The position numbers were made by a program, and so were the translations under genes. DNA of 64,000 nt from contig CP136069.1 in NCBI GenBank assembly GCA_032622095.1, forward strand, positions 3,375,566 to 3,439,565. Reading direction: 5' to 3'. This document shows, piece after piece, positions 9,069-42,408 of the stretch. The notes beneath the pieces were generated by a model that was given only the letters and a program-made list of their open reading frames with translations, did not search any database and was not told where the DNA came from. How positions within the stretch are numbered: the first letter of the stretch is position 1; the number at the start of each line of letters is the position of its first letter. The stretch comes from Siphonodentalium dalli (taxonomy: Eukaryota; Mollusca; Scaphopoda; Gadilida; Siphonodentaliidae).

Positions 9069-9082
9069 GTATGCTTCAGTGT

Positions 9083-10793: not shown

Positions 10794-10884
10794 GATAATA
10801 TCGGACCATGGGAGAGAAGCTCGATTTCCGTATCTGGACGAGGATGTTGTCCGATTTCTTAGTGATCTGCCACTCGATCAGAAA
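10794..10884 (+). CDS. ASNSD1: ASNSD1, exon
   Basis: Fourth ASNSD1 exon in the window. The acceptor is TAATATTTCAG ending at 10793 and the donor AAA|GTGAGT at 10885. The first base completes the arginine split across the intron. The peptide [20 protein letters not shown] corresponds to the family's GDHGKEARFPFLDENVV segment as I recall it (the xVRxPFLD region of asparagine synthetases). Confidence 0.95.
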
Positions 10885-10944
10885 GTGAGTAACAATTAAA
10901 GTAATATGGAATGCTCCTATAACATGTTCAGAAGTAAATAGTGA

Positions 10945-12440: not shown

Positions 12441-12974
12441 TTAACCCTTTCAGTGCCAAGTCCGATTTTGTTTACCCTGTGCCAATGCATTCTCTTATAT
12501 ATGCGAGTCGACCATAGGTCGCCTCGCATATACAAGAGAATGCATTGGCCTAACAATTTTTTATAATTTTTTTTATAAATTTTTCTTACAATATTTAGGA
12601 CATAAAATAAAAAAACATCCATTACCCTGCAGGGAGCCCCACACATATATAGAATCATATAGAAGAGTGTCGTCTGCTCATGTTTGTCTGGGGGTCTGTA
12701 TGGGTGAAATTATAAAATTGTTAAAGAATATAAGAACAAATTATTAAAATTGTAAAAAAATAATAACAAATGATAAAAAATTGTTAGGCCAATGCATTCT
12801 CTTATATATACGAAGTGACCTATGGTCGACTCGCATATATAACAGAATGCATTGGCACAGGGCTCTTAGAGCTCTTTCCATTAATGTATCCCATTTTTAT
12901 AATCAATAAATTTGAAAAATGATCAAGGAAATATGGGTTGATACAAAAATCAGACTTGGCACTGACAGGGTTAA
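12441..12974. mobile_element. CCCTTTCAGTGCCAAGTCCG MITE containing a full hairpin-ended element
   Basis: The left end is TTAACCCTTTCAGTGCCA. A complete hairpin-ended element at 12475-12862 replaces most of the left arm. The right arm continues from GCTCTTAGAGCTCTTTCC to CAGACTTGGCACTGACAGGG. The right terminus is the seed of the adjoining minisatellite. Confidence 0.8.
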
Positions 12975-13416
12975 ATGAGACTTGGCACTGACAGGGTTAA
13001 ATCAGACTTGGCACTGACAGGGTTAAATCAGTCTTGGCACTGACAGGGTTAAATCAGACTTGGCACTGACAGGGTTAAATCAGACTTGGCACTGACAGGG
13101 TTAAATCAGACTTGGCACTGACAGGGTTAAATCAGACTTGGCACTGACAGGGTTAAATCAGACTTGGCACTGACAGGGTTAAATCAGACTTGGCACTGAC
13201 AGGGTTAAATCAGACTTGGCACTGACAGGGTTAAATCAGACTTGGCACTGACAGGGTTAAATCAGACTTGGCACTGACAGGGTTAAATCAGACTTGGCAC
13301 CGACAGGGTTAAATCAGACTTGGCACTGACAGGGTTAAATCAGACTTGGCACTGACAGGGTTAAATCAGACTTGGCACTGACAGGGTTAAATCAGACTTG
13401 GCACTGACAGGGTTAA
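12949..13416. repeat. 26-bp minisatellite, exactly 18 copies, derived from a MITE terminus
   Basis: Eighteen head-to-tail copies of a 26-bp unit (ATCAGACTTGGCACTGACAG plus GGTTAA) run without a break and with only three or four substitutions. The first copy is the right end of the MITE at 12441-12974, so the array arose by tandem amplification of a transposon end. It stops 59 bp before the last ASNSD1 exon. Confidence 0.95.
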
Positions 13417-21930: not shown

Positions 21931-22086
21931 GGCAACGCATGAGAATAGTAGTCCACTAATAGTCGGGGAGCCAATAAGGTCCACCTGCACCCCCCCGATG
22001 ATTACAAATAACCTTATTTTTATTGTTCCCTATGGTATCCAGATAAAGAATCCGGAATTCACCGAAAAATAAAGGTGGCCCTACTA

Positions 22087-25000
22087 GGTTACACTGGTGT
22101 AAATAAGGTTCCGAGTGACATCTGGCGGATGCGGGAGGAATATATAGGAGAGAATAAAATAGACACTGGGCCCTGATTGGTCAATAGCCTTGTGTGCTTT
22201 TCACATAAAAAAATCGTCACACCTCTTCCCTATGATTTCCCATAGGTAAAATAACCATTGGCACAGGAATTAACCCTTTGTAGTGAAGTTTGAATTTTTT
22301 GGTGTGGTCTAAAATATGACTGTATTTTTTTATGCGGTTCTGACACTAGTTACGAAAACATAAGATTTAAAGGCGAATTCCCTGCTAGACAGACATGATT
22401 TTTTTGTGTAAAAAGTTTCCCAAAATGTCAATTTTTCAGATTTAAAGAAATTTTTTGACCCAACATTTATATTGCCAACACTATACGCTAAAACGTTAGC
22501 ACTGAGGCCTATGGAAAACATTTACACCAGTGTAACCTAAAGGGAAAAAATAGCTTTTTATCATTTTTGATTCCTGGGAGTCACTTTAAAGCATTTTAAT
22601 GCATTTTACAGAGCCTGGTCTTTCAGTCCAATGAATATCTCATGCTTGATGTGGCTATTCTTGCTGCTGATGCCTTCTTTCACTTACATCAGCCAAAAAA
22701 ATAGTAAGATTTTTCATAAAAAATGCCAATTTTTCAAGGTATTTTCAAAAAATTTCAAGGTGGTAATAGTCACATGATAATGCAAATGACCCATAACATG
22801 GGCATGTCAACGACACATATATCAATTGTTATAAGAACCTAATTTAACAAGTATTTTGGATTTTATAGCCAGTGATATACAGATATATATCATAAAAGTG
22901 TGTCATTTCCACTGGTGGGTATGGTCATTTGAAGGTTAATAGCACTAAAACTTGGACACATTTAAGAAAATGCTCCAGCAATTCAAAGAGAGCATATCTT
23001 TATTCAACTAATTCAATATACACCCACATCCAGTTATCTTGGATCACCCTTGCAGACCTGAAAATGTCATATTTTATTCTTCAATGTGCTGATAAAGTCA
23101 TGCGCTTGATGCTCAGCTGATCAGATCTGGACTCAATGACCTCACATCACCAGAAGTTCTCTCATGGAAAAAATATTGAACAGTCTTCCATAGCTGATCC
23201 AAGTTTGCAACACCAGACCCCTAAAACTGAGTGAAAATGGGGCCTGAACATGACTGGTGGTGGAAAATTGTGCTTTTTTGATGAATAATTTGTTAAAGGG
23301 GGTGGGGTTAAATTGTGTGTGATAAATAAAGAACCACAGAAGTGATGTTGTTTTTGAACACATTTTTTCGATTGATGGGCAATTCTGAAGAATTGTAGGG
23401 AGTTACAATTATTCCGCGAAAAAGCGGGCTATCGCTTTAGGTTACACTGGTGTAAATAAGGTTCCGAGTGACATCTGGCGGATGCGGGAGGAATATATAG
23501 GAGAGAATAAAATAGACACTGGGCCCTGATTGGTCAATAGCCTTGTGTGCTTTTCACATAAAAAAATCGTCACACCTCTTCCCTATGATTTCCCATAGGT
23601 AAAATAACCATTGGCACAGGAATTAACCCTTTGTAGTGAAGTTTGAATTTTTTGGTGTGGTCTAAAATATGACTGTATTTTTTTATGCGGTTCTGACACT
23701 AGTTACGAAAACATAAGATTTAAAGGCGAATTCCCTGCTAGACAGACATGATTTTTTTGTGTAAAAAGTTTCCCAAAATGTCAATTTTTCAGATTTAAAG
23801 AAATTTTTTGACCCAACATTTATATTGCCAACACTATACGCTAAAACGTTAGCACTGAGGCCTATGGAAAACATTTACACCAGTGTAACCTAAAGGGAAA
23901 AAATAGCTTTTTATCATTTTTGATTCCTGGGAGTCACTTTAAAGCATTTTAATGCATTTTACAGAGCCTGGTCTTTCAGTCCAATGAATATCTCATGCTT
24001 GATGTGGCTATTCTTGCTGCTGATGCCTTCTTTCACTTACATCAGCCAAAAAAATAGTAAGATTTTTCATAAAAAATGCCAATTTTTCAAGGTATTTTCA
24101 AAAAATTTCAAGGTGGTAATAGTCACATGATAATGCAAATGACCCATAACATGGGCATGTCAACGACACATATATCAATTGTTATAAGAACCTAATTTAA
24201 CAAGTATTTTGGATTTTATAGCCAGTGATATACAGATATATATCATAAAAGTGTGTCATTTCCACTGGTGGGTATGGTCATTTGAAGGTTAATAGCACTA
24301 AAACTTGGACACATTTAAGAAAATGCTCCAGCAATTCAAAGAGAGCATATCTTTATTCAACTAATTCAATATACACCCACATCCAGTTATCTTGGATCAC
24401 CCTTGCAGACCTGAAAATGTCATATTTTATTCTTCAATGTGCTGATAAAGTCATGCGCTTGATGCTCAGCTGATCAGATCTGGACTCAATGACCTCACAT
24501 CACCAGAAGTTCTCTCATGGAAAAAATATTGAACAGTCTTCCATAGCTGATCCAAGTTTGCAACACCAGACCCCTAAAACTGAGTGAAAATGGGGCCTGA
24601 ACATGACTGGTGGTGGAAAATTGTGCTTTTTTGATGAATAATTTGTTAAAGGGGGTGGGGTTAAATTGTGTGTGATAAATAAAGAACCACAGAAGTGATG
24701 TTGTTTTTGAACACATTTTTTCGATTGATGGGCAATTCTGAAGAATTGTAGGGAGTTACAATTATTCCGCGAAAAAGCGGGCTATCGCTTTAGGTTACAC
24801 TGGTGTAAATAAGGTTCCGAGTGACATCTGGCGGATGCGGGAGGAATATATAGGAGAGAATAAAATAGACACTGGGCCCTGATTGGTCAATAGCCTTGTG
24901 TGCTTTTCACATAAAAAAATCGTCACACCTCTTCCCTATGATTTCCCATAGGTAAAATAACCATTGGCACAGGAATTAACCCTTTGTAGTGAAGTTTGAA

Positions 25001-25243
25001 TTTTTTGGTGTGGTCTAAAATATGACTGTATTTTTTTATGCGGTTCTGACACTAGTTACGAAAACATAAGATTTAAAGGCGAATTCCCTGCTAGACAGAC
25101 ATGATTTTTTTGTGTAAAAAGTTTCCCAAAATGTCAATTTTTCAGATTTAAAGAAATTTTTTGACCCAACATTTATATTGCCAACACTATACGCTAAAAC
25201 GTTAGCACTGAGGCCTATGGAAAACATTTACACCAGTGTAACC
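22087..25243. mobile_element. A-S-A-S-A direct-repeat insertion, 3157 bp
   Basis: Three 451-bp blocks A (22087-22537, 23440-23890, 24793-25243) alternate with two 902-bp blocks S. The 1353-bp period looks identical by eye. Each A begins GGTTACACTGGTGTAAAT and ends ATTTACACCAGTGTAACC. ACTA flanks the whole insertion (22083-22086, 25244-25247), while the unoccupied site in the opposite arm (about 40850) has a single ACTA (CCCTACTAGGTGC read on the minus strand), so this is a 4-bp target duplication. The layout mimics LTR-internal-LTR-internal-LTR. The 60-73 codon frames in A and S resemble no protein I know. Confidence 0.88.
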
Positions 25244-26499
25244 ACTAGGTGCTAGAGCCATTTGAATCCAAGATGGCCGCCATTTCCTCTAATTCCGACC
25301 AGCTGTATTTAATCGTTGTAATAGATCGGTTGTTAGCAAAAGACACAGACAAAATATATGCCATTTGTTGGTATGATGTCCTTCTTCAAATGACGGCAAA
25401 AAATTTCGAAAAAAAATTCAAAATGGCCGCCGAAAAATGACGTCATCTGCACGAAAATAGGAAATTTAATTAATATTTCACCATATCTTCCATTTTTCTT
25501 CACATTAATCATTAGTAAATGGCAATGTTTTTGAGACAGTCATCAAGCGTGATATTATAGCGTCATTTTAAGACATTTGCCATTGACGAGGGTTCCGTAA
25601 TAGATACAGAAAGAGGATTTGAAAAAGAGGGGTAAAATTTTCGATTTTTTGCCAGACGATTTTGATAGTCATTTTATCGACAAACCACACAGGCTGTTAA
25701 TAGAATGTCAACAACTATGTGCTTTATTTTATTGGACGGATGTTTTACTTCAATGGGAATGAAATTGGTGTAGAAAATTTCCAAAATGGCCGCCGAAAAT
25801 ATGAAAAATGGTAAATATTGCCCCAGGGTGTCCTGCAATGGCTTACAAGTTGTGGTTAATATATAAAATTGGCTAATCTGTATTATATACATTGCATACT
25901 AACATGTCTGATGCACCATGGATCATTGTTTCTATTGTCACCACTGACATCACCAGAAATATTGGATTTTTCTCTCACAAACTTGACATAAATTTCGGCA
26001 AAAATTCACTTTTCAGGGTTGGACAATTGTTTTAAGTAAAATGCAACTATCATTGGTATCAAAGGTATTTATTGTATTGGTCTATCTTAAATGTGTCACA
26101 CTACGGTGTTTATAGACCAAATTGCTCAAGATGGCTTCCAAAATGGCAACCAAATTTGTAAAAAGTTAATTTTTTACATATATCCCGAACATTATTCTCT
26201 GCGTTATCCGACAAGGTAGTAAATTGTGACTCACTTGGTTATTGTACGTGTTAGTTTATTAACTGACAACTACGTTCTATTATGTTTGTCCCAGTTCCAT
26301 ATGGGGCATGACAAATTCATTTTAAAGTTGCAGTATGGAATTTTGCGGAGAACCTCTTTTGTGTTTCTTGCCATATTATTGAAAGGAAATGGGCAGAACT
26401 TTGAAACGGAACTGAGATGAACCATAATATGTGGCTATTCTGGTCCATTATGATAAAACATATCAACTGGATACACGGTGGATGCCAAGATGGTAGCCA

Positions 26500-27400
26500 G
26501 GGAGTTACTATATGGTCATAGATGAGGTGAATAGGTATACAGGGAGTTATTGTATGGTCAACGGTGAGATGAGTACATGTATGTATACAATTAGTGACTG
26601 TATGATCATAAATGTAATGAATAGCTATACAGGGAGTGACTAAATGGTCATGTGTCAGGTGTATGAGTATACCCGGTGTTCCTGCTTGGTGACGTGTAGG
26701 TCATGTGTAGGTTATACGGGTATACACATGTGTTGCTATATGGTCATGGGCGAGGGGTATGTGTATATAGCGAGCGGCTATATGGCCATGGATGATGTGC
26801 ATATGCATACATGGAGTGAATATACTGACATGGCTGGGGAGTATTAGTATATCTTGAGTGGCTATTCTGCTATGGTGTGACAAATAGGGATACGGGGAGT
26901 GACATGGCCAAGGGTGAGGTGAATATATATACAATGATTGACCATGATCATGTACGAATGTTTTGAATAGGTACACACGGTGTGACTATATGGCCATAGG
27001 TCAGATGAAGGAGTATACCAGGTGCCATGGGTGAGGGTATGTGTATGAAGCGAGTGGCTATATGACCATTGGTGAGGTGGATATGTATACCCGGGGTGAC
27101 TCTATGGTCATTGTTGTGGTGTTGATGTATATATTGAATGTCCTATTTGACCATGTGTGTGTGGAGAATAGGTATACCATGGGGATGACCGTATGGCCAA
27201 TAGTGAGGTGAATGGGTATACAAGGAGTGACTCTATGGTTATGGGTCATGTTTAGGATTATACCCGGTGTGACTGCATTGTGACTCATGGCTGTATGGCC
27301 ATCCATGGTCATGGGTCAGGTGTACGTTTATACAGTTGGTCACTATATTGTTATGTCTGTAGTGTTTATGTATATATGGAATGACTGTGTGGTAATGGGT
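26500..27400. repeat. ~42-bp degenerate minisatellite, left arm of foldback
   Basis: About 20 units of the type GAGTGACTATATGGTCATGG then GTGAGGTGAATAGGTATACA. Units diverge considerably, and the mirrored array in the right arm has the same divergent units in the same order over 26500-26930. Confidence 0.85.
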
Positions 27401-27529
27401 GGCTATCGCTTTTCACGTTTAAAGTTCCCCCATGTACACAAACACTATCATGGCTGGAGAACTCTTTGATATGACCTCTCTATTGATTAAGATATCCTTG
27501 CGTTATTGTGGAAAGCGATAGCCACCCAA
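27400..27529. mobile_element. Small inverted-repeat element at the foldback centre
   Basis: GGGTGGCTATCGCTTT at 27400 and AAAGCGATAGCCACCC near 27513 form inverted ends around ~90 bp. The minisatellite switches orientation across it, so it marks the symmetry point of the foldback. It may be the original loop or a separate small MITE. Confidence 0.7.
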
Positions 27530-28245
27530 ATTACACATGTACAACCCACCCATGACCTCATATGTACATAAACACCACACAAATGACAATATAGTCACCC
27601 ACTCTATACACATACACCTGACCATACAGCCATATTTGGTTATACTGGTACATGCCACAAATGACGATACAGCCATGAGTCACCATGCATGAACACCAGG
27701 TATACTTCTACACCTGACCATATAGTCACTATGTGTATACATATTCACCACATTCACGATCATAAAGTCACTCATTGTATACCTATTCACCTCACCGTGG
27801 ACCATACAGCCACTACATGTATATCTATTCGCCATACCCATGACCATAGAGTCAATCCAGATATACATATACACCTCATCAATGGTGAGCCCTTCCAAAT
27901 ATACCAATACCCGCACACACGACCACTCATAAGTTTAATACTTGCATATACACCTCGCACATGACAATTCAGCAACTCAATGTATACTTATACACGCCAT
28001 CCATGATCATTCATCTACTAGTACACCCTATACACCACCGATGATAATACATCCACAACATATATCAATATACGACCCACCCGTTACCAAAAGGCACTCC
28101 CTATATAGCCACAGGTATGCATATAACTTCAATCTTGACCGTACAGGCATACCAGGTGCACCTATACACATTACCCATAACCATAAAATCACTCCCTATT
28201 TATCTACGCACTCCATCCATGATCATACAGACAGCACAAATATAT
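27530..28245. repeat. ~42-bp minisatellite, inverted orientation (right arm, inner part)
   Basis: Units such as CATACAGCCACTACATGTAT with ACCTCACC/ACACCTGACC run opposite to 26500-27400. Open frames rich in His, Thr and Ile here are repeat read-through. Confidence 0.8.
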
Positions 28246-28558
28246 AATATTTATAAATAATATTACTTTTTCCTTAAGGGAAGCCCGAAACTGAACTATA
28301 TGGATTACGTCTCCGGCCTTGTGTCAATCAGGAGGGTTAAAATTTTATTGCTGTGCCGACCCTACTCACATCCGTGTCCAGATTAGTCTCGCATGAATAC
28401 ACCCGCATTCTATCTATTGTCTAGTCAGTTTTTTATTTCCGACTTAATCATGAGATTTGCGAGTCGCGGGGTTGGGAATGGCACCACCATGGGAGGGATC
28501 TATGATAGTTCAGTTTCGGGCTTCCCTTAAGGAAAAAGTAATATTATTTATAAATATT
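28246..28558. mobile_element. Short TIR element, 313 bp, derivative of the 28561-35445 family
   Basis: Ends AATATTTATAAATAATATTA and its complement continue as TTTTTCCTTAAGGGAAGCCC. From 28290 to about 28440 it matches the reverse complement of the big element's right end (GTCTCCGGCCTTGTGTCAAT, TTATTGCTGTGCCGACCCTA). It is therefore a deletion derivative lying next to a longer relative. Confidence 0.8.
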
Positions 28559-29442
28559 ATATTTTTCCGCCAAGGAGAAGCCCTCAACTGAACTATATGG
28601 ATTAGAATGCAAGCCCAGGAGGAGGCACGAGCAATAAAGTTAATTAATATCCAAATTCGATGGGAATGTACTCTTCCGAAACAGGATTCATGTAAATGTG
28701 ATTTAGTCATGAATCAGATATGATTATGTTACGTGAAAGAGCTCCCCAATTCAGATTACGACATTGCTCAAATGTGTACCGCACCCCCCCCCCCCCTTTG
28801 TTTTTGGAATAAACATCCCAGGTAGTGCCATATAATTCATGCTAGCGAGACAATCGAGCAAGTATAACTTTGCTGCATCCTATTCTCTTTGTTATCTTCT
28901 CCGCTCTCGCGAAAGTTCACATTATGAACTGATGTCACATGCAGCCATTGTGTATGCCATAACATATCAGAATGCTTATGATACACCAGGGAGCAAATTA
29001 ACTAGAATCGCATCGCGATTTGCCACTGAAATGTGGATACCGGTAATAGCGAGGAATTTTTTATACATGTATGATGTTATAAAAATGCTATCTAATCATG
29101 TCAATGTGAGATTATTTGCGAATCAGATATCGAAAGTAAATTGCTCCCTGTGATACACAAACCAGATATAAAAATGATATGCTGCAGATATCATAGCGAG
29201 GTATGAGGTTTCATTAGATCATGCCACACATCTGTACTCCAGCCTCGTATAATGTAGAGAGCAGGGAACGCCATCATGATCCAAGGTATCATTGCATACC
29301 AGTATATATGGGATTAGAGAACACCACTGAGGACTTGATGAACAAGCATAGAAGCATCAGTGATCTATGATGGCGCACATAACGAGTGTCGGGTACATTT
29401 CGAAATGATCAAATGTAGCAGAATGATCAAAATTGCAAAATG

Positions 29443-29965
29443 ACCGGTGAAGGAGTGGCCTGGAGGTATCCCGAAGGTATTACGATTCCAGGAGATTGGA
29501 CCCCATCGTGTGGAGATGTGGGCCACTGCACCGTGGGGAAGAGATAGAAGGCTGGTTGGTGCAGCTCTTGGAGGCACGCAACAAGTCTTCCCCACCCAGA
29601 TCATTCAGCCTTTCTTTCCTACCGGTGAAGGAGTGGCCTGGAGGTATCCCTAAGGTATTACGATTCCAGGGGATTGGACCCCATCTTGTGGAGATGTGGG
29701 CCACTGCACCATGGGGAAGAGTTAGAAGGTTGGTTGGTGCAGCACTTGGAGGCACGCAACAACAAGTCTTCCCCACCCAGAACATTCAGCCTACCGGTGG
29801 AGGAGTGGCCTAGAGGTATCCCGAAGGTGTACGATTCCAGGGGAGTGGCTGGACCCCATCTGTGGAGATGTGGGCCACTGCACCGTGGGGAAGAGGCAGA
29901 AGGCTGGAGCAGCTCTTGGAGGCACGCAACAACTCTTCACTTCCCCACCCAGAACATCCTCCAAA
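29443..29965 (+). repeat. ~175-bp tandem repeat, 3 copies, possible degenerate exons
   Basis: Units start at 29443, 29621 and 29793 with ACCGGTGAAGGAGTGGCC (GGTGG in the third). Shared blocks are GATGTGGGCCACTGCACC, GGAGGCACGCAACAA and TCTTCCCCACCCAGA. Related copies recur at about 30475, 31435, 32559 and 33529. More than one frame is open in parts, so coding potential cannot be decided. Confidence 0.8.
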
Positions 29966-30056
29966 GGCTACAGTGCTGGATCTTTCCTGACTGAGATAAA
30001 TACTTGGACTTATCGCAAATTGTTGAATTAAATGAAGCAATATAAGATATCAACCT

Positions 30057-30268
30057 GTATCCTCATCCTGTACAAAATCACTTACCAGCGGAACATCAGA
30101 ATCCTCGTCCGACAGTGTGCCTGGTGACCCACTGTCGACCCGCGATTCTTGCTCATCGTCGTCAAACCTGCCGACGCCACGCGATGCAGAGAAGCATGTC
30201 GAGATCGACGCCAGCCAACAGAATTGGCTGCATCAGGTTGGGATACCAGACTGTGGAAGAGGCCTACA
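30057..30268 (+). other. Ser-rich open frame, possible exon, unknown function
   Basis: An open stretch of about 70 codons without a start methionine: SGTSESSSDSVPGDP, then STRDSCSSSSNLPTPRDAEK and VEIDASQQNWLHQVG, ending at a TGA. A second frame over the same bases is open from 30115 (TVEEAYTEMVRRKTNALAFG). Composition suits a disordered protein segment of a transposon gene. No homology is recognised. Confidence 0.25.
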
Positions 30269-30319
30269 CTGAAATGGTTCGACGCAAGACAAATGCTCTT
30301 GCATTTGGGATAAGTAGCT

Positions 30320-30496
30320 ATGTCCTGTCCAAGGTCACCCCCTCAAATTCAGGGGCATCATCAAGCTGCGCCCCCAAGGCCAGAGGGAATAAGTTCTGAT
30401 GAGCCATTTGATCAGAGGAAGCCCCTTCCATGGAATCCCCCAAATGCAGGTGGTCCTGACCAAACTGGAATAAATGTCGATGACATACCACTATGA
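30320..30496 (+). other. Pro-rich 58-codon open frame, unknown function
   Basis: ATG-initiated frame MSCPRSPPQIQGHHQAAPPR continuing to EPFDQRKPLPWNPPNAGGPD and a stop after VDDIPL. It could be the C-terminal exon of a gene in the big TIR element, because a related stop-proximal segment (GTCGATGACATACCACTATG) recurs in the 31435 repeat. Unproven. Confidence 0.25.
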
Positions 30497-33400
30497 TCAC
30501 ATGACGGCGGAGGAGCAGGCCCGGATGTATCCCGAAGGTATTACGATTCCAGGGGATCGACTGGACCCCATCTTGTAATGATGTGGGCCACTGCACCATG
30601 GGGAAGAGTCAGAAGGCCATTTGGCTGGTGCGCTATGTCTATGAGAGCAAGAGCGTCACGTGACAACGAGTCTTCCCCACCCAGAACAGCCGCCAAAGGC
30701 TACTCCCAGGTGCCCAATAATTGTGGTGGCCTATAAACAGATCTTCGTGGCAGGAATCCAGGCCGAAATCAAAATACTGATGGAAATTTCACTCTATGTG
30801 GAATAATAGTATATCGATGTGAATTTTTTCGAAATTTAATAATCGTATTGCCACTACCATTAGGCACCTGAGAGAAAGGTGCCGGAGCAATCGCCCGTGA
30901 AGATTGGTTTCCCGAATCAACCACTTGCAGCACCCGCCTACCATTGGTTCACACTGCCGTAGCAGGACCTGGGGGGCCAGAACTGGTCCTGCCCGAGGTA
31001 AAGACTGGTACGGTTGCTCAAAGTAGGTAATCATTGACTAATATGCCCTTACCCAACTATAACAAGTAATACACCCGTGAATGAGCAACCTGCACGGTGT
31101 GTGGCCATCAAATTCGAATCATGTTCGACTGCAAGACATGCTGTTAGTTATAACAAAGCAAGGTTAATATACATAACACAATACAACCTAGGTTATTGAG
31201 TATAAAGTAAGGTTAATATAAAATCACGTTATACCCCTGGCCACGTGATCTTACCTGCTATGACAGGTAAGATACTGTCTTTTCTCGTATATGAGGACGA
31301 TGAGTTCCGAATGCACATAGGCAAGAACTAGGCGGTTTCCGTTAGGAAAGTGCGCTTACAGCGGACGTGAAGATACGAATGCCTTCATTTTCGTCATGAT
31401 TGTATCGAATCGTTTTGTCACATAATCAGTGGATATGTCGATGACATACCACTATGATCACATGACGGCGGAGGAGCAGGCCCGGATGTATCCCGAAGGT
31501 ATTACGATTCCAGGGGATCGACTGGACCCCATCTTGTAATGATGTGGGCCACTGCACCATGGGGAAGAGTCAGAAGGCCATTTGGCTGGTGCGCTATGTC
31601 TATGAGAGCAAGAGCGTCACGTGACAACGAGTCTTCCCCACCCAGAACAGCCGCCATAGACGAAGAGCCATGTCATGGCCGGTTTCGGAAATATATTGGC
31701 AGTAGATGTGCGCAATATAAACGCTGCGCATGTAAGCTCGCTTTAGACATGTAACAATACAAATGCAGTCCTTTCTGATATTCTGCGCAATATAAATGTG
31801 TTGCATGTAACTGCGCATCATACACGAGTGAAAGCTATGTGGCAGAATATCGTTTTGATATATGTGGAAATAGAAGTTAGTGAGCCAAGTGATGGTCTCT
31901 ACTGGAAAGACTATTGGCAGTGAATCTGGAGCACGTGACAATATGTATTCTTTCTATTTCGCTGTTTGCCGTTATCATTCACTGATGAAACTGCAAAGTA
32001 TGTCAGTATTGGGATGAAAACTGTTCACCATATGTAAGCATACTAGTAGTCAGTTCTGACAGCATACATGAGGCCCTGATACCATATGATTGTCATGTAC
32101 AATGTATGGAACTATTACGGCGTGCAATACATTATTGAAAGCTCGCCCATGCCGAGGCATATTAGAGCCTACGGTAAGAAGGCTTAGTGTCAGGCTACAA
32201 AGTTTTCACTTCATTGCAGTTGGTGAACAATAGGTCGTAGTAACCCAAACTGTACATACATGGATGTAAAGAATGCAACACAATATTTAGAACGTCAGAC
32301 AACACATCAATTTGAAGTGTGGTTATATATGTGATAACGAATACCATCCCCCTGTTACGGAGTGTTAGTAACTATTGTACTGATGATACAATGAGTTATA
32401 TGATATTTAATCGTGATAGACAAGGCAGAATNNNNNNNNNNNNNNNNNNNNNNNNNNNNNNNNNNNNNNNNNNNNNNNNNNNNNNNNNNNNNNNNNNNNN
32501 NNNNNNNNNNNNNNNNNNNNNNNNNNNNNNNGGTCCTGACCAAACTGGAATAAATGTCGATGACATACCACTATGATCACATGACGGCGGAGGAGCAGGC
32601 CCGGATGTATCCCGAAGGTATTACGATTCCAGGGGATCGACTGGACCCCATCTTGTAATGATGTGGGCCACTGCACCATGGGGAAGAGTCAGAAGGCCAT
32701 TTGGCTGGTGCGCTATGTCTATGAGAGCAAGAGCGTCACGTGACAACGAGTCTTCCCCACCCAGAACAGCCGCCAAAGGCTACTCCCAGGTGCCCAATAA
32801 TTGTGGTGGCCTATAAATAGATCTTCGTGGCAGGAATCCAGGCCGAAATCAAAATACGGATGGAAATTTCACTCTATGTGGAATAATAGTATATCGATGT
32901 GAATTTTTTTTTTTTTTTTTTTGAAATTTAATAATCGTATTGCCACTACCATTAGGCACCTGAGAGAAAGGTGCCGGAGCAATCGCCCGTGAAGATTGGT
33001 TTCCCGAATCAACCACTTGCAGCACCCGCCTACCATTGGTTCACACTGCCGTAGCAGGACCTGGGGGGCCAGAACTGGTCCTGCCCGAGGTAAAGACTGG
33101 TACGGTTGCTCAAAGTAGGTAATCATTGACTAATATGCCCTTACCCAACTATAACAAGTAATACACCCGTGAATGAGCAACCTGCACGGTGTGTGGCCAT
33201 CAAATTCGAATCATGTTCGACTGCAAGACATGCTGTTAGTTATAACAAAGCAAGGTTAATATACATAACACAATACAACCTAGGTTATTGAGTATAAAGT
33301 AAGGTTAATATAAAATCACGTTATACCCCTGGCCACGTGATCTTACCTGCTATGACAGGTAAGATACTGTCTTTTCTCGTATATGAGGACGATGAGTTCC

Positions 33401-34523
33401 GAATGCACATAGGCAAGAACTAGGCGGTTTCCGTTAGGAAAGTGCGCTTACAGCGGACGTGAAGATACGAATGCCTTCATTTTCGTCATGATTGTATCGA
33501 ATCGTTTTGTCACATAATCAGTGGATATGTCGATGACATACCACTATGATCACATGACGGCGGAGGAGCAGGCCCGGATGTATCCCGAAGGTATTACGAT
33601 TCCAGGGGATCGACTGGACCCCATCTTGTAATGATGTGGGCCACTGCACCATGGGGAAGAGTCAGAAGGCCATTTGGCTGGTGCGCTATGTCTATGAGAG
33701 CAAGAGCGTCACGTGACAACGAGTCTTCCCCACCCAGAACAGCCGCCATAGACGAAGAGCCATGTCATGGCCGGTTTCGGAAATATATTGGCAGTAGATG
33801 TGCGCAATATAAACGCTGCGCATGTAAGCTCGCTTTAGACATGTAACAATACAAATGCAGTCCTTTCTGATATTCTGCGCAATATAAATGTGTTGCATGT
33901 AACTGCGCATCATACACGAGTGAAAGCTATGTGGCAGAATATCGTTTTGATATATGTGGAAATAGAAGTTAGTGAGCCAAGTGATGGTCTCTACTGGAAA
34001 GACTATTGGCAGTGAATCTGGAGCACGTGACAATATGTATTCTTTCTATTTCGCTGTTTGCCGTTATCATTCACTGATGAAACTGCAAAGTATGTCAGTA
34101 TTGGGATGAAAACTGTTCACCATATGTAAGCATACTAGTAGTCAGTTCTGACAGCATACATGAGGCCCTGATACCATATGATTGTCATGTACAATGTATG
34201 GAACTATTACGGCGTGCAATACATTATTGAAAGCTCGCCCATGCCGAGGCATATTAGAGCCTACGGTAAGAAGGCTTAGTGTCAGGCTACAAAGTTTTCA
34301 CTTCATTGCAGTTGGTGAACAATAGGTCGTAGTAACCCAAACTGTACATACATGGATGTAAAGAATGCAACACAATATTTAGAACGTCAGACAACACATC
34401 AATTTGAAGTGTGGTTATATATGTGATAACGAATACCATCCCCCTGTTACGGAGTGTTAGTAACTATTGTACTGATGATACAATGAGTTATATGATATTT
34501 AATCGTGATAGACAAGGCAGAAT
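30452..34523. repeat. Near-identical ~1.99-kb tandem duplication flanking an assembly gap
   Basis: 30452-32431 and 32532-34523 differ by a T-run length (6 against 18 bases near 30830/32910) and at least two substitutions. Each copy itself contains two copies of a ~217-bp segment (30475/31435 and 32559/33529). The first copy stops, and the second starts, exactly at the N run, so an assembly artefact is as likely as a real duplication. Confidence 0.9.
32432..32531. other. Assembly gap, 100 N
   Basis: Exactly 100 unresolved bases, a conventional placeholder length, joining two copies of the same ~2-kb block. Confidence 1.
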
Positions 34524-35265
34524 TGTCGAAATACCTTGAAGACGATGTAATGTGTTATTACATTTGCCATGTGTCTAACAAGACCACGCGCTCATACATA
34601 CTGGCGGGCGTAGATTCGCAGGTATTGATCGTTAAAACAATGTTACAGATCGCTCAGTCGAAAGAAATGTGAATTGTCATCTGATGATAACAAGTACTAT
34701 CTTTCGTATTTATTCATGTAAATTATTACAAAGGAGGATATGGCTGTCCCGTGCAACTTTCTGGGAATTAACAGAGCAGTGCCATGTATGATTTGGTAGT
34801 ATACATTAGGATACAAAGCAACGGAACTTACGAAATAACCGAAGCGAGTCGACGGAAACTTATGTAAAGTGAAACACGTGTAGCACGAAATTAGGAGATA
34901 TCGCATACCGTACTACATTGCGTCCTCAATTGTAAGTCATGATAGTCATCACGCCGTATGTGTGGCTCAATATGCACTATGTGGTTTTGCCACAAGTAAG
35001 CTATGTGCTTCTTTAGTCATTGTCAAGATGGCCATCTTAATCCAATTGATGGAAGATAAAGCCGTCTTGAGGAAAACAGAAAACACGGAAACAAATTACG
35101 GATACAGTGAAACGAAAAAAGTTCCCGTTTCGGATGTGAGAAATATTAATTAACTATCGGGTACAATAAATTGCAAGTTTGTAATATCAACAATAAATAT
35201 TGAGTCGATAAACTCGCAACACAGAAAGATACAACCTTGAGAAAATAGAAACGATCCTGTCCTGG
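34524..35265. other. Inner right part of the large TIR element, no recognised content
   Basis: Unique-looking, with no convincing frame or motif. The last ~180 bp (35266-35445) are the subterminal region shared with the 313-bp derivative. Confidence 0.5.
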
Positions 35266-35511
35266 CGAGGAGGAATAAAAACTGACTAGACAATAGATAG
35301 AATGCGGGTGTATTCATGCGAGACAAATCTGGACACGGATGTGAGTAGGGTCGGCACAGCAATAAAATTTTAACCCTCTGATTGACACAAGGCCGGAGAC
35401 GTAATCCATATAGTTCAGTTGAGGGCTTCTCCTTGGCGGAAAAATACATATACACCCACATGTCACAATACAGCCACACACGGTACACATATACATCCCA
35501 CCACGACATTA

Positions 35512-37674
35512 GGCCGGTATAAATAAATTCCTAGATCATCATCCAAATTTTTTTCAAAAGTGGGGCGGGGGGGGGGGGGGGGGGGGGGGGGGGGGCGAAT
35601 TTTATTTTTTATTTTTTATTTCGAAACTACCATGTTTCCAATACAGTATTTTCCTTAAACTAGCCGAGTGAATTTCACAGTGGTTTGTATTATCCGCATG
35701 CAACCCTGATGCATGGATGTGTGATGGAAGACACACTGTAGCACTTAAAAAATACAAGCTAAATGTGTAAATCACTCAACTTTTATAATACAAGTCCTAC
35801 ATGTAATTGTAGACTACATTGGTGTTAGTTGATGGGGGGGGGGATATGCCCATGGGTATATACCGGGTGCATATAGAGAAAGCACATGTCATTGTGTTCA
35901 TGGACAAAGGATGCAATTGCAATATGCAACACATGGTTGATATATTTATAAATACATTGATTGTATTTAATAAATGAGTCAATTGGTCATCATGTCATCA
36001 TTCAGCTTTTCGTTCCAGATTTATTGACGTATTATAAAACAGACGTGAAACATTTGTATTGAGTATACACTGCATCATTTGCCTGTTCTCAATGACACGT
36101 GCAATACAGTACAAGCTCCCGAGAAAGTTAACTTGTATTTATATTAATTCAAACATCTTTAATATTTATTAAAAAATTAAAACACTTTTATCACAACCCA
36201 AAGGGTTGTTTTACAGTAACATAAGCAACGCAAGTATAGTTGTGACGTCAGTAATTTCTATACTCTATCAATATGAAAAAATTGATTTTACATCCGGGCG
36301 ATTCAGACCTATGGGGCCCTATGGTGGCCGCCATGTTGGAATAGAATTGTCAAATTAATAAAACGAATTTATTTTTCTTCTTCGATCAGCCTCCCTATAG
36401 CAACACTATTAAATTTGAAAACAAAATCAACCTTATTCAAAATTAAATGCTTAATGTGGATTTAGCTGACGCGGGCGCATAGCATTCGGCAAACCTCGCC
36501 AGATTCCGTACCGTTACAGTTAGAATATTAGTATTGATGTTTAATAAAGAAACATGAAACCATTTTAGATATTTAATTGTTATTTTGACAAATTTGACTT
36601 ATCGCATCTATTTCTGGCAGCCGGGAATGTCGTAAAATTTCACCGAATGGATTACTTAAAATCATGTCTAGTTTCAGTTTATTTTACATATATACAATAA
36701 TTGATACCCAAGTGTGCTTAATATAATATAATAAATGTAAATTCATCATTTACACGACGTCTTTGTCAACACAAAGATCACAGAATAGTAGAGATATACC
36801 AATGTCGTAAAATAAAAAAAATGTGTTGTCACAGTCAATAGAGTTACAGCGCTTGCATCGAGATTCGCGATGACAATCTTCTGAGAACGCGTTCCACAAA
36901 GTTGTGATTTTTCGTAAAACTGCGTCAACTTTATTCACTCGAAACCAAAATATTCAAACACGTGCTTTTGTATACGTTTTTTATACGTTTTAGCATTCGG
37001 CAAACCTCGTCATATTCCGTCACCGTTTGCCCCAGAGGTCACAGGTCGAGGAGTTCAGAATGCCGTTTTAGTAGAAATACAACTGCCTTGTCAGTGCTGT
37101 TAAATAATTACACTCACTGGCTTTTGTTAACATGCAATTAGTCGCCATTGTAACATCCTCTATGTAGACAATGGATCACGAATAAAGCGCCGGGCTTATT
37201 GTTTTCCTGATTGGATTAAATCTGAACATTGATATAAACTATAGTCAGACTATAGATAACCCACACTGCCGCTTACATAATAACCAGGGCATTCCCGACT
37301 CCAAGCAAACACTTGGGAACAAGACGACTGTCAGTCAAGACTACTTACATAATAGTGTCATTTTAACATGGGAATGTTGTCCAATAAAACTACAAGACTT
37401 AAAGTGTTATTTTAATATTCACATTTAATTGAAAAAATTCCCAAATAATCGGCGTTAGATCGGCTTTCATCAGTTTTACTGTCCCGATTTCTTAGGATTT
37501 TTGGTTTGCAAAGGGCCATATCCGAGTTTAAGCCCACTTGGATTTTTGAGCTCAAATAAAACAAAGGCCCCCTGGGCCTAAACGCGGGTCAGTACGGTAA
37601 TAAAAATATATGGGGCGGGCCAAAAAAATCGGGGCGGGCGGGGATGATGATCTAGGAATTTATTTATACTGGCC
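35512..37674. mobile_element. TIR element with TTA target duplication, 2163 bp (Harbinger-like)
   Basis: Inverted ends GGCCGGTATAAATAAATTCC (left) and GGCCAGTATAAATAAATTCC (right, minus strand) continue to GATCATCATCC. TTA flanks both sides (35509-35511, 37675-37677). A 3-bp TTA/TWA duplication is typical of PIF/Harbinger, but no transposase or Myb-like frame is present. A 29-base G run lies at 35567. GCATTCGGCAAACCTCG occurs twice inside (about 36483 and 36993), an internal duplication. Confidence 0.75.
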
Positions 37675-37677
37675 TTA

Positions 37678-38093
37678 CAGTCACTCCATATATACATAAA
37701 CAACTCACAGATGACCATGTAGCTACTCTCGTTATATCTATACACCACAGCAATGCCCATACGGTCACAACGGCCACACACAACAATACACCGTACAGTC
37801 ACTACATGTATACCGATTCACCTCACACATGCCCATACAGCCACTCCTTATATTCCTATGCATCTCACCATGGACACCCCACTCATAACCATATAGTCAC
37901 TCCTTGTATACATATTCACACCATTCATGCCCATACAGTAACTCCCTGTATATATATTCACCTCACCCTTGGCCATGTCACTCCCCGTATCCCTATTGTC
38001 ACACCATAGCAGAATAGCCACTCAAGATATACTAATACTCCCCAGCCATGTCAGTATATTCACTCCATGTATGCATATGCACATCATCCATGC
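37678..38093. repeat. Foldback right-arm minisatellite segment
   Basis: ~42-bp units in the orientation CAGTCACTCC ... TATACATATTCACC. This is the mirror of 26850-27380, separated from the outer arm by the hAT element. Confidence 0.8.
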
Positions 38094-39308
38094 TAGAGTT
38101 TAATATTTCCCGGTTTATTTTGGAAAACGGAACCGGGACATTTTTCATCCCTGGATCCGGGAACCGGGAAAATTCCGGTTTATTTGTTGACATCATATTA
38201 TGATAATAACTTACTGCCGAAGGTCAAAATATATACACAACATGGTTTTAATGCAACATCTCTTTAATTACTTTTAAAACTTACAGTTGAACAACAAAAG
38301 TAACACGCGAATCTTGCCGCATTCTTGCGCCATTTAAACAAAAATAAACACATGATTGATTTTCACAGTTCATAACTTCATAGTCAAATCGTACTGTAGT
38401 TTAGCGTACCGTACCGTTAATGTCATCAATTTAGCAGCATCAACGAAGACTCGATCACCCTTAAGTGAAAGTTCGTTAAGCAATCGTCTGTTTTACGTAG
38501 AAGTTTTGCGATAGAACTTCCGTAAAAACAGAAGAGCTGTCACTTAATCGTGAGTTATTAGCCTGACGAATGAAATATTCCCAAACCGGCGAGGCATTTT
38601 GCATGCAAGCCATATCCAGTCACTGATTCACTGTATAATAATAACACGATTTACACGAACAATACGGCAATGTGACGGCATCAAATGATCTAACTATCAT
38701 AAGAAAGGTTTGTCAATTGTCATGTATATACTATATAGCATAAATGACGTCATGACTCATGAATGGAGTCATGATGTCGTCATCTTAAGCGACCTTCACA
38801 CAGCTTCGCAAACTCGCAACGTTCGGTGCAACCGTGCAAGGTCAGTTGAAATATACAACACTGTCTAGACTCTAGATCAAAGAATTCCCCGACAAACGGA
38901 AAAGCCGCGTCAGTAATGCCATCATGTTGCAGAATCGCATTGATGTGTTTGACCTCAAACGGCGAGTGAGACAATGTTGTCAATTTCACTGTGTCTGTTT
39001 ATATTAGTAACACTATCAAATTATCAATGCCGGCCATTCCAGGGTGCCCCAAAAACGTTATAATTACGTGCAGACTGCAGTTAACACTAGATATGACGGT
39101 AACGAATCTAACGATCATACGATATACACGATTGTGCTTAAAACGTACATATACACACTATTAAATACATTATGTTCCGACTCAAATCACATCACAATGG
39201 ACGTTTTACATTTCCCGGTTCCCGGTTCCCGGTTTTGAAAATCCGGATTTCGGGACTTGTCAATTGGAAATCGGGAACCGGGAATTCCCGGTCCCGAATT
39301 AAACTCTA
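38094..39308. mobile_element. hAT-type non-autonomous element, 1215 bp
   Basis: Inverted ends TAGAGTTTAAT / ATTAAACTCTA and a perfect 8-bp duplication ATCCATGC at 38086-38093 and 39309-39316. The mirrored left arm (about 26790-26800) is continuous here, giving an internal empty-site control. Subterminal regions have CCCGGTT/AACCGGG runs. A 69-codon frame at 38780-38989 (minus) shows no recognisable domain. Confidence 0.9.
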
Positions 39309-40947
39309 ATCCATGCCCATATAGCCGCTCGCTATATACACATACCCCTCGCCCATGACCATATAGCAACACATGTGTATACCCGTATAACCTACACATG
39401 ACCATACCGCCACATCACCAAGCAGGAACACCGGGTATACTCATACACCTGACACATGACCATTTAGTCACTCCCTGTATAGCTATTCATTACATTTATG
39501 ATCATACAGTCACTAATTGTATACATACATGTACTCATCTCACCGTTGACCATACAATAACTCCCTGTATACCTATTCACCTCACCTATGATCATATAGT
39601 AAGTCCCTGGCTACCATCTTGGCATCCACCCTGTATCCAGTTGATATGTTTTATCATAATGGACCAGAATAGCCACATATTATGGTTCATCTCAGTTCCG
39701 TTTCAAAGTTCTGCCCATTTCCTTTCAATAATATGGCAAGAAACACAAAAGAGGTTCTCCGCAAAATTCCATACTGCAACTTTAAAATGAATTTGTCATG
39801 CCCCATACGGAACTGGGACAAACATAATAGAATGTAGTTGTCAGTTAATTGACTAACACGTACAATAACCAAGTGAGTCACAATTTACTACCTTGTCGGA
39901 TAACGCAGAGAATAATGTTCGGGATATATGTAAAAAATTAACTTTTTACAAATTTGGTTGCCATTTTGGAAGCCATCTTGAGCAATTTGGTCTATAAACA
40001 CCGTAGTGTGACACATTTAAGACAGACCAAAATAATAATACCTTTGATACCAATGATAGTTGCATTTTACTTAAAACAATTGTCCAACCCTGAAAAGTGA
40101 ATTTTTGCCGAAATTTATGTCAAGTTTGTGAGAGAAAAATCCAATATTTCTGGTGATGTCAGTGGTGACAATAGAAACAATGATCCATGGTGCATCAGAC
40201 ATGTTAGTATGCAATGTATATAATACAGATTAGCCAATTTTATATATTAACCACAACTTGTAAGCCATTGCAGGACACCCTGGGGCAATATTTACCATTT
40301 TTCATATTTTCGGCGGCCATTTTGGAAATTTTCTACACCAATTTCATTCCCATTGAAGTAAAACATCCGTCCAATAAAATAAAGCACATAGTTGTTGACA
40401 TTCTATTAACAGCCTGTGTGGTTTGTCGATAAAATGACTATCAAAATCGTCTGGCAAAAAATCGAAAATTTTACCCCTCTTTTTCAAATCCTCTTTCTGT
40501 ATCTATTACGGAACCCTCGTCAATGGCAAATGTCTTAAAATGACGCTATAATATCACGCTTGATGACTGTCTCAAAAACATTGCCATTTACTAATGATTA
40601 ATGTGAAGAAAAATGGAAGATATGGTGAAATATTAATTAAATTTCCTATTTTCGTGCAGATGACGTCATTTTTCGGCGGCCATTTTGATTTTTTTTCGAA
40701 ATTTTTTGCCGTCATTTTGAAGAAGGACATCATACCAACAAATGGCATATATTTTGTCTGTGTCTTTTGCTAACAACCGATCTATTACAACGATTAAATA
40801 CAGCTGGTAGGAATTAGAGGAAATGGCGGCCATCTTGGATTCAAATGGTTCTAGCACCTAGTAGGGCCACCTTTATTTTTCGGTGAATTCCGGATTCTTT
40901 ATCTGGATACCATAGGGAACAATAAAAATAAGGTTATTTGTAATCAT

Positions 40948-40948
<1 letters not shown>

Positions 40949-41002
<54 letters not shown>
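40949..41002. repeat. 54-base poly(G) tract
   Basis: An uninterrupted G run next to the right end of the foldback. The matching position of the left arm has only seven C (21990-21998), so the tract expanded after the arms formed, or is partly an assembly effect. Confidence 0.95.
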
Positions 41003-41003
<1 letters not shown>

Positions 41004-41089
41004 GGTGCTGGTGGACCTTATTGGCTCCCCGACTATAAGTTAACTGTTAAAAGAGCATACCACATACGCGAATTTATAAATTTATTGTG

Positions 41090-42408
41090 AAAACAAATGA
41101 GCACCCCCCTCCCCATTCAACCCCTTCTTATATTTCTGATTGTCCCCCGACGTTTCCGTCGGAGGACTATAGAAATGACCCTCGTCCGTCCGTCCGTGCG
41201 TGCGTCCGTCCGTCCGTGCGTCCGTGCGTCCGAGATTGGGTACCTTCATGGTGTAATCAACTCCTCCTACAGTTTTAAACGTAGAGATTTGAAACTCTGG
41301 GATATTGTTACTAACATGTTGGTGATTTGCAACATCTATATAGCTAATCAAAAATATAATTTTTTCCATATTTTTGGGGGGGTTTTCGACTTAGAAAATT
41401 TGAAACATTTTTGCCTTTTGGATGAGATTGGGTACCTTCATGGTGTAATCAACTCCTACTACAGTTTTAAATGTAGAGATTTGAAACTCTGGGATATTGT
41501 TCCTAACATGTTGGTGATTTGCAACATCTATATAGCTAATCAAAAATATCATTTTTTCCATATTTTTGGGGGGGTTTTCGACTTAGAAAATTTGGAACAT
41601 TTTTGCCTTTTGGATGAGATTGGGTACCTTCATGGTGTAATCAACTCCTCCTACAGTTTTAAATGTAGAGATTTGAAACTCTGGGATATTGTTCCTAACA
41701 TGTTGGTGATTTTCAACATCTATATAGCTAATCAAAAATATCATTTTTTCCATATTTTTGGGGGGGTTTTCGACTTAGAAAATTTGGAACATTTTTGCCT
41801 TTTGGATGAGATTGGGTACCTTCATGGTGTAATCAACTCCTCCTACAGTTTTAAATGTAGAGATTTGAAACTCTGGGATATTGTTCCTAACATGTTGTTG
41901 ATTTGCAACATCTATATAGCTAATAAAAAATATTATATTTTCCATATTTTTGGGGGGTTTTCGACTTAGAAAATTTGGAACATTTTTGCCTTTTGGATGA
42001 GATTGGGTACCTTCATGGTGTAATCAACTCCTCCTACAGTTTTAAATGTAGAGATTTGAAACTCTGGGATATTGTTCCTAACATGTTGGTGATTTGCAAC
42101 ATCTATATAGCTAATACAAAAATATCATTTTTTTCGCGTTTGCATGCGTTTGTTCATCGGGTTGTTTTGTCCAAGAAATTTTGCGGTGGTTTGCAACATC
42201 TATATATTGTATAACATTGTTGCAAATAGTATCCTTCTAACAAATCCAATCATGAAGTTTACCACTCCAGTCGGGGGACATGTGGTCTGCGACCTTTTAT
42301 TGATATTGTCATGTTAACACATGGGTCGATATACTTTGTGAATGCATGGCTATATGTTTTTTGTATCTTGAAGTTAATATGTAAATAAAGATATTAAAAA
42401 AAAAAAAA
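41090..42408 (+). mobile_element. Retroposon-like block: TCCG microsatellite, 192-bp tandem repeats, poly(A)
   Basis: Opens with GTTTCCGTCGGAGGACTATA and a (TCCG/TGCG)n run at 41183-41230. It continues with about 4.6 copies of a 192-bp unit (GAGATTGGGTACCTTCATGG ... TTTTGCCTTTTGGAT) and ends with AATAAAGATATT followed by A(13). Because 192 is divisible by three, a 290-codon frame runs through the repeats (EIGYLHGVINSSYSF per unit). That frame has no recognisable domain and is probably not a protein. The poly(A) tail with upstream AATAAA suggests RNA-mediated insertion. Confidence 0.7.

What the first reader, a model, noticed from the sequence alone, without database searches (positions are those of the whole stretch)
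21960..41035. A 19-kb foldback element with minisatellite arms and nested insertions, resolvable layer by layer
Outer inverted ends (TAGTCGGGGAGCC...) enclose arms that are ~97% identical at the outside and become ~42-bp tandem arrays inside, with the orientation switch at 27400-27530. Five later elements break the arms: 22087-25243 (ACTA duplication), 28246-28558, 28561-35445, 35512-37674 (TTA) and 38094-39308 (ATCCATGC). Removing them leaves about 5 kb. Long TIRs made of tandem repeats recall Foldback/Galileo elements, which I know mainly from flies, so a giant member in another animal lineage would be notable. No transposase is present, so the mobiliser is unknown.
Basis: partly seen in the sequence, partly recalled or inferred. 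Interest (0 to 1): 0.88.

Follow-up and report, generated by a model that had tools for sequence, protein, structure and literature searches.

The report
Common hairpin transposon with overwritten arm
This is one copy of a common jumping DNA element, about 5,300 letters long and shaped to fold back on itself, which was later hit by five other elements; relatives in the same genome suggest that one of its two arms was overwritten by a copy of the other.

Summary
The foldback is real. Tips lie at 21960-22086 and 40859-41035, the collinear arms have 20 substitutions in 1,819 aligned bases, 42-bp arrays lie inside, and five later inserts break it. It is not giant: the 19 kb is a ~5.3-kb element plus inserts, and a 100-N gap (32432-32531) flanked by a ~1.98-kb contig overlap inflates one insert by ~2.1 kb. 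Eight intact relatives are 5.2-5.3 kb, without N, with the same arms, arrays and off-centre loop; one, aligned to the window, shows the empty sites. Target duplications are exactly 3 bp, of varied sequence, in 18 of 20 two-ended copies. That argues against Galileo/P (7-8 bp), Mutator-type foldbacks (8-10 bp) and Tc4 (TNA in CTNAG). No transposase was found; the mobiliser is unknown. New: in subfamily B the two arms are separate lineages; in the window's subfamily A the outer ~1.85 kb of the long arm looks like a copy of the short arm, switching near 37940. A tree without arm exchange is rejected (p-AU 5e-5). Foldbacks are known outside flies; this is a new variant of a known kind.

The parts
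21957..21959 (.). left copy of the 3-bp target duplication (TAA)
   Evidence: sequence; 3-bp duplication exact in 18 of 20 two-ended copies
21960..22086 (+). outer tip of the short (S) arm
   Evidence: 99-100% identical at 40 of 40 scored places, of 1,096 first-look candidates; first 26 bp exact at 659 places
22087..25247 (.). later insert 1 (R-I-R-I-R, 453-bp R units) plus one ACTA copy
   Evidence: tip and flank domain are contiguous in the fetched intact copies
25248..26500 (+). non-repetitive flank domain of the S arm
   Evidence: found in both arms of fetched intact copies at about 93-99%
26501..27394 (+). S-arm array of 42-bp units (about 21 unit lengths in intact copy L012)
27395..27535 (+). 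central loop, where the array orientation switches; off-centre in the intact copies
   Evidence: 94-99% identical in the copies that hold it whole
27536..28245 (-). inner part of the long (L) arm array; keeps the old L lineage
28246..28558 (.). later insert 2, short element with inverted ends, at or beside a TA
28561..35445 (.). later insert 3, 45-bp inverted ends, at a TA; contains the assembly gap and the duplicated overlap
32432..32531 (.). 100-N assembly gap between two overlapping contig ends
35448..35511 (-). L-arm array, continued
   Evidence: 98.6% to L012 element 3108-3179
35512..37674 (.). later insert 4, TTA duplication
   Evidence: junction overlap of 3 bp against L012
37675..38093 (-). 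L-arm array; the switch from old L lineage to copied S-arm sequence lies near 37940
   Evidence: 100% to L012 element 3177-3595; switch point in L012
38094..39308 (.). later insert 5, 8-bp duplication ATCCATGC
   Evidence: junction overlap of 8 bp against L012
39309..41035 (-). outer L arm: array end, flank domain and tip (tip 40859-41035), read as being of S-arm origin
41036..41038 (.). right copy of the 3-bp target duplication (TAA)
   Evidence: sequence

Best explanation
The element is a non-autonomous DNA transposon of foldback form. SHOWN: its tip occurs hundreds of times; the intact copies read carry tip, flank domain, 42-bp array, off-centre loop, array, flank domain and tip; 18 of 20 two-ended copies sit in an exact 3-bp duplication; in the window's subfamily A the two arms have been equalised after the split from subfamily B, and the outer ~1.85 kb of the long arm resembles the short arm of B. 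INFERRED: an unidentified transposase that cuts with a 3-bp stagger recognises the TAGTCGGGGAGCC tips and moves the element in trans. INFERRED: the long arm was overwritten by the short arm while the two paired, during gap repair, gene conversion or a template switch in the hairpin. That made a longer collinear inverted repeat in the copy that founded subfamily A, which then multiplied. The window copy was later hit by five other elements.
For: 659 exact tips against 0 for the reversed control. Eight intact A copies of 5,196-5,268 bp, none with N, 98.0-99.6% to L012 (L014 in two blocks). The 3-bp duplication is exact in 18 of 20, the cross-pair control gives 17 of 380, and 0 of 20 match at 4 to 10 bp. 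Arms in B (8 copies): within-copy S-L 4.51%, S-S 2.84, L-L 2.55, 3 fixed differences. Arms in A (9 copies with the window): 0.69, 0.76, 1.01, none fixed. The 442-bp outer L array of L012 matches the S arm of 8 of 8 B copies at 94-96% over ~430 bp, but their L arms only in patches at 71-82%. Switch between arm positions 1,800 and 1,900 (L012 against L030). The all-S against all-L tree costs 56 log units, p-AU 4.6e-5.
Against: No transposase or autonomous copy was found, so mobilisation in trans is inferred. The array block could have been lost from B's long arm rather than gained in A's, since no outgroup fixes the polarity. On the flank domain alone the direction S to L is weak: putting A with B_L gives p-AU 0.042 but p-KH 0.11 and p-SH 0.41, and A_L is nearer B_S than B_L in 7 of 8 B copies, equal in L027. 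Two of 20 copies lack the 3-bp match (L027, L031). The copies were taken from the best or first-listed matches, not at random.
Confidence: 0.78

Rival explanations
1. It is a Galileo/P-superfamily element in another animal lineage.
For: Long, internally repetitive inverted arms, as in Galileo (PMC3573991 sections 3 and 7).
Against: Target duplication is 3 bp of varied sequence in 18 of 20 copies, not 7-8 bp GTATTAC/GTANTAC. No P-type transposase domain in the window stretches scanned.
Confidence: 0.02
2. It is a Mutator-type foldback such as Tetris or Tm1.
For: Architecture much like Tetris: outer flank domain, tandem-repeat domain, inner domain, non-coding middle.
Against: Tetris duplications are 8-10 bp and Tm1 8-10 bp, mostly 9; here 0 of 20 match at 4-10 bp.
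Confidence: 0.03
3. The inverted arms are an assembly artefact of joining two contigs head to head.
For: There is an N gap between the two arms.
Against: The contig ends overlap by ~1.98 kb at 99.2%. Other copies have both arms in one stretch without N (L009-L015, L022, L023 and others; N counted in L001-L028). The window's two arms have different inserts and different flanks with a shared 3-bp duplication.
Confidence: 0.02
4. No arm overwriting: A keeps the ancestral collinear arms, and B lost array units from its long arm and drifted.
For: No outgroup fixes the polarity of the array block; the flank-domain test of direction is weak (p-SH 0.41).
Against: A's arms differ by 0.69% within a copy while A and B differ by about 3.8-4.8%, so A's arms must have been equalised after the split, and the no-exchange tree is rejected (p-AU 4.6e-5).
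Confidence: 0.12
5. It is a Tc4-like foldback (a foldback with a 3-bp duplication).
For: Tc4 is a fold-back element that duplicates only TNA (PMC11071193 section 6 and reference title). The window's own site reads C-TAA-G, which fits CTNAG.
Against: Of the 18 duplications, 13 are not TNA (GTA, TTG, CAC, TAT, ATA, AAA, CTG, GGT, TTT, ATT); of the 5 that are, only the window's lies in CTNAG (flanks).
Confidence: 0.03

Closest known systems
Tetris, Drosophila virilis (PMC4079207; abstract, section 10 and part 1 of section 16 read)
   Same: Non-autonomous; arms with a non-repetitive outer flank domain followed by tandem repeats; variable repeat number; mobiliser unknown
   Different: 8-10 bp duplications, ~220-bp repeats and three structurally complete copies there; 3 bp, 42-bp repeats and 659 exact tips here
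Galileo, Drosophila (PMC3573991 abstract, sections 3, 7 and part 1 of 10; PMC4168063 passages)
   Same: Long inverted arms that expand by tandem repeats and by recruiting sequence of one end onto the other; subfamilies; copies made of arms only
   Different: 7-8 bp duplication with consensus GTANTAC and a known P-superfamily transposase; here 3 bp and no transposase found
Tm1, root-knot nematodes (PMC3169594, abstract and passages)
   Same: Foldback-like composite arms, short MITE-like derivatives, no clear target consensus
   Different: 8-10 bp duplications and a Phantom/Mutator-type transposase in some copies
Tc4, C. elegans and relatives (PMC11071193 section 6)
   Same: Fold-back structure and a 3-bp duplication
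   Different: Target is CTNAG with TNA duplicated; here 13 of 18 duplications are not TNA
Zator superfamily (PMC10045372, passage)
   Same: 3-bp target duplications
   Different: No sequence link shown; the one family searched (PF07592, the prokaryotic relative's domain; that link is recalled for the Pfam model) matched nothing here or in the 14 controls, so the search is uninformative

Membership tests
Foldback-type element (structural class) | Long inverted arms containing internal tandem repeats | tested here: met
Foldback-type element (structural class) | Multiple dispersed copies with target duplications | tested here: met
   659 exact tips; 18 of 20 with a 3-bp duplication
Galileo (P superfamily) | 7-8 bp target duplication, consensus GTANTAC | tested here: not met
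   0 of 20 copies match at 7 or 8 bp; family value
Galileo (P superfamily) | P-type transposase in autonomous copies | tested here: inconclusive
   none in the window stretches scanned, but no autonomous copy was found to examine
Mutator-type foldbacks (Tetris, Tm1) | 8-10 bp target duplication | tested here: not met
   0 of 20 at 8, 9 or 10 bp; family values
Tc4 | TNA duplication within CTNAG | tested here: not met
   5 of 18 duplications are TNA and 1 of 18 (the window) lies in CTNAG; family value
Zator or another superfamily with 3-bp duplications | 3-bp duplication | tested here: met
   family value for Zator
Zator or another superfamily with 3-bp duplications | Matching transposase in an element with these tips | tested here: inconclusive
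   PF07592 found nothing in this genome or in the controls; the PF02992 search did not complete

The most novel reading that the evidence does not exclude
The tips TAGTCGGGGAGCC with 3-bp duplications mark a transposase lineage not yet tied to foldback elements, which has produced long-armed families of different age in this genome (the young ~5.3-kb family and the older L038 type). Arm overwriting inside the hairpin would be its regular way of renewing inverted ends before each burst of copies.
Probability: 0.3. Interest if true: 0.7.

Novelty: new variant of a known kind. Interest (0 to 1): 0.48.

Why it matters
How the arms of foldback elements stay alike is not settled. Here two subfamilies, whose arms can be told apart by an off-centre loop and unequal arrays, let one read a single overwriting event with its breakpoint and, less firmly, its direction. 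[quoted passage not shown] A family with 659 exact tips and exact 3-bp duplications points to an origin other than Mutator or P. It also shows that an apparent 19-kb giant can be a plain 5.3-kb element plus inserts and an unmerged contig overlap.

Tried and rejected
Pfam scans, six frames with stops read as X: 28561-32431, 34400-39400, 22000-26900, L038:1-5000. No transposase. Hits listed and set aside: TDBD 0.021, and PF13889 0.0014, PF02939 0.076, PF23693 0.089, PF16985 0.026, PF13538 0.0028, PF10115 0.0063 and PF09834 8.9e-5 (DUF2061, 23.3 bits against a cut-off of 23.1, no stretch significant alone; by my coordinate reckoning it lies inside insert 1). Not scanned: 21960-21999, 26901-28560, 32532-34399 and 39401-41035; the last two repeat scanned sequence.

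Viral-contig scan with the 20-bp tip: no hit. Rfam and tRNA scans of the window: nothing. Similarity of the 42-bp unit to the tip, as extra transposase sites: within the range of shuffles. In the same call the arrays agree with their unit at 79%, while shuffled sequence reaches 72-76% under that gap-rich alignment, so the case for period 42 rests on the autocorrelation and on TRF, not on that number. PF07592: nothing here or in the controls. Tips diverging at base 14: 38 sites, 32 with C, control 2, no +/- pair within 15 kb; these led to the older relative L038, not to a mobiliser. The 17.9-kb copy at C1:173025433-173043380 was read in the hope of a gene; it holds ~13.4 kb of ~163-bp tandem repeats. 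Paper searches: in the listings, abstracts and passages I saw, no foldback with nonspecific 3-bp duplications is described; the library is partial.

Rows dropped: of the 20 stretches, 13 entered the arm comparison; L016, L017, L020, L021, L024, L025 and L026 did not, being truncated, short or lacking one end in the stretch. The duplication count used 16 of the 20 plus L029-L031 and the window.
Full report
OBSERVATION. The arms, the arrays, the switch of orientation and the inserts are in the sequence at the stated places. A self-comparison gives one 1,556-bp inverted block at 98.5% (25244-26793 with 39309-40862), the tips at 100% over 100 bp (21990-22089 with 40856-40955), and a further block of 209 bp at 91%. 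With inserts set aside, the collinear part has 1,819 aligned bases with 20 substitutions and 7 indels; the largest indel is 50 nt, where the right arm has a run of 54 G and the left a short run of C. Both arrays repeat at 42 bp. In the intact copy L012 the short-arm array is about 21 unit lengths and the long-arm array about 35.

THE GAP. The window has one run of 100 N, at 32432-32531, inside the third insert. The 1,980 bases before it and the 1,992 after it are the same sequence, aligned to the edges of the gap, with 3 mismatches and one 12-T length difference. This is how two overlapping contig ends look when they were not merged. The insert is therefore about 2.1 kb shorter than it seems, and the locus is about 17.0 kb rather than 19.1 kb.

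OTHER COPIES. The genome holding the window has 2.23 Gb in 9 contigs and no name. A frame at 8905-9336 and a weak Asn_synthase match whose best stretch lies near 10801-10899 suggest an asparagine-synthetase-domain gene; 42 proteins match a 51-residue piece at up to 71%, one labelled Acipenser sinensis. That the host is an animal is my inference. The outer 127 bp gave 1,096 first-look candidates, of which 40 were scored, all at 99-100%. The 26-bp tip occurs exactly 659 times (310 + 349), its reversed control never; 100 places were listed. Twenty stretches around copies were fetched, then three more. Eight intact copies of the window's type are 5,196-5,268 bp long, contain no N, and carry tip, flank domain, array, loop, array, flank domain and tip. 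They are 98.0-99.6% identical to L012, six of the other seven in one end-to-end block and L014 in two. Copies of a second type (B) are 4.9-8.3 kb, the longer ones through duplications or inserts. The inner long-arm array of L012, queried alone, gave 4,918 first-look candidates, 40 scored; 40 of 42 listed matches are at 99-100%, the other two at 72 and 75%. So the arrays travel as a fixed part of the element. That list shows no cluster of matches such as a satellite would give, but the tool skips simple repeats and the surroundings were not read.

INSERTS. The window copy aligned with L012 shows the inserts as breaks whose edges overlap by the duplicated target: ACTA, TA, TTA and ATCCATGC. Inserts 2 and 3 share one break; their order was not resolved.

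TARGET SITE. Of 20 copies with both ends in hand (19 loci and the window), 18 have an exact 3-bp direct repeat at the ends and none matches at 4 to 10 bp; left and right flanks of different copies agree at 3 bp in 17 of 380. The misses are L027 (AAC/TAG) and L031 (ACA/ATA). One further copy, read later and not in that count, has TAT/TAT. The triplets vary. Around them there is a weak palindromic preference: C at the second base to the left (11 of 18), G at the first two to the right (12 and 11 of 18). This argues against membership of Galileo/P (7-8 bp), of the Mutator-type foldbacks Tetris and Tm1 (8-10 bp) and of Tc4 (TNA in CTNAG). The window's own site, C-TAA-G, would fit Tc4, but 13 of 18 triplets are not TNA. 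The superfamily stays open. A 3-bp duplication is stated for Zator, but my one search on that line rang in no control and shows nothing.

ARM HISTORY. The loop is off-centre, so the arms can be named short (S) and long (L). There are two subfamilies: A (9 copies including the window) and B (8 copies, ~4% away). An inner stretch of the flank domain, about 800 bp, was compared in 34 arms. In B the arms differ by lineage: S-L within a copy 4.51%, S-S 2.84%, L-L 2.55%, 3 fixed differences. In A they are one mixture: 0.69%, 0.76%, 1.01%, no fixed difference. In the tree B's L arms form a group (support 98) and A's 18 arms another (99); B's S arms form none of their own, because A sits among them. 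A's long arm is nearer B's short arm (3.83%) than B's long arm (4.79%) on average, and in 7 of 8 B copies, L027 being equal. Along L012's long arm, similarity to the short arm of L030 runs from the tip through the first ~440 bp of array and stops between 1,800 and 1,900; from 2,000 inward it matches the long arm of L030 at 94-97 per 100 bases. The 442-bp outer array of L012's long arm is found in the short arm of 8 of 8 B copies at 94-96% over ~430 bp, and in their long arms only as patches at 71-82%. The all-S against all-L tree is rejected (56 log units, p-AU 4.6e-5). A tree with A's arms on the B_L side is not clearly rejected (p-AU 0.042, p-KH 0.11, p-SH 0.41). The edge of collinearity in the window at 26942/37938 coincides with this switch. 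So exchange between arms is well supported; the direction S to L rests mainly on the array, and its polarity lacks an outgroup.

STRUCTURAL VARIATION. Several B copies carry tandem duplications of flank-domain bases ~57-432, in one arm (L011 in part, L019, L027) or both (L018, L028, L031); L029 and L030 have none. This recalls Galileo, where tandem repeats expand and sequence beside one arm is recruited into the other (PMC3573991 section 7). Short derivatives exist, for example a 645-bp copy (L017).

OLDER RELATIVES. Tips that diverge at base 14 number 38 against a control of 2, and 32 of them read ...GCCC. Six were read (1.5 kb each); they share terminal stretches of about 40-255 bp at 74-95%. 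One locus, L038, is a ~3.9-kb element with ~1.1-kb arms at 75% identity and scattered similarity to the flank domain; its far tip has 3 mismatches and its target duplication was not tested. So the tip seems to mark a lineage with long-armed members of more than one age.

MECHANISM. Shown: many copies, precise 3-bp duplications, a fixed modular structure, no long reading frame (longest ATG frame 174 aa in 4 of 4 intact copies examined), and arms in A equalised after the A/B split. Inferred: movement by a transposase made elsewhere; pairing of the arms as the route of overwriting; this event as the founder of subfamily A.

ASSESSMENT. As a structure this is a known kind. New are the nonspecific 3-bp duplication in a foldback family, as far as the papers I saw go, and a readable case of arm overwriting.

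Noticed in passing
window 22085-25243: Insert 1 is R-I-R-I-R: three 453-bp R units and two ~900-bp I units, 100% identical over 1,806 bp, each R with inverted GGTTACACTGGTGTAAAT ends. Either recent tandem recombination of a terminal-repeat element or a tandem MITE.
   Followed up: partly
window 28246-28558 and 28561-35445: The two side-by-side inserts are relatives (93.9% over 181 bp at their ends); the longer one carries ~178-bp repeats and no Pfam domain in 28561-32431.
   Followed up: partly
window 40949-41002: Run of 54 G in the right arm where the left arm has a short run of C; real expansion or sequencing artefact.
   Followed up: no
L039-L040 (G000:C1:173025433-173043380): A 17.9-kb copy of the same foldback with ~13.4 kb of ~163-bp tandem repeats inside its flank domain; TAT/TAT duplication. 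The window has a period-164 array at 62969-64000; the two were not compared.
   Followed up: partly
window 48549-59724: About 11 kb of compound minisatellite built from 10-, 29- and 39-bp units (CATTGATAATCTAACACAAATGATTTCGC) with longer periods of 107, 136 and 146 bp.
   Followed up: no
window 41232-42133: 192-bp tandem repeat, 4.7 copies at 97%, just outside the right end of the foldback.
   Followed up: no
window 8905-9336 and about 10801-10899: Frame resembling an asparagine-synthetase-domain protein (the name ASNSD1 is my recall) and a PF00733 match, E 7.8e-7 for the whole frame, no stretch significant alone.
   Followed up: partly
L038 (G000:C4:43789171-43799170), bases 1 to about 3870: Older long-armed relative sharing the 13-bp tip, arms 75% alike.
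   Followed up: partly
window 12947-13416: 26-bp minisatellite, 18 copies at 98%.
   Followed up: no
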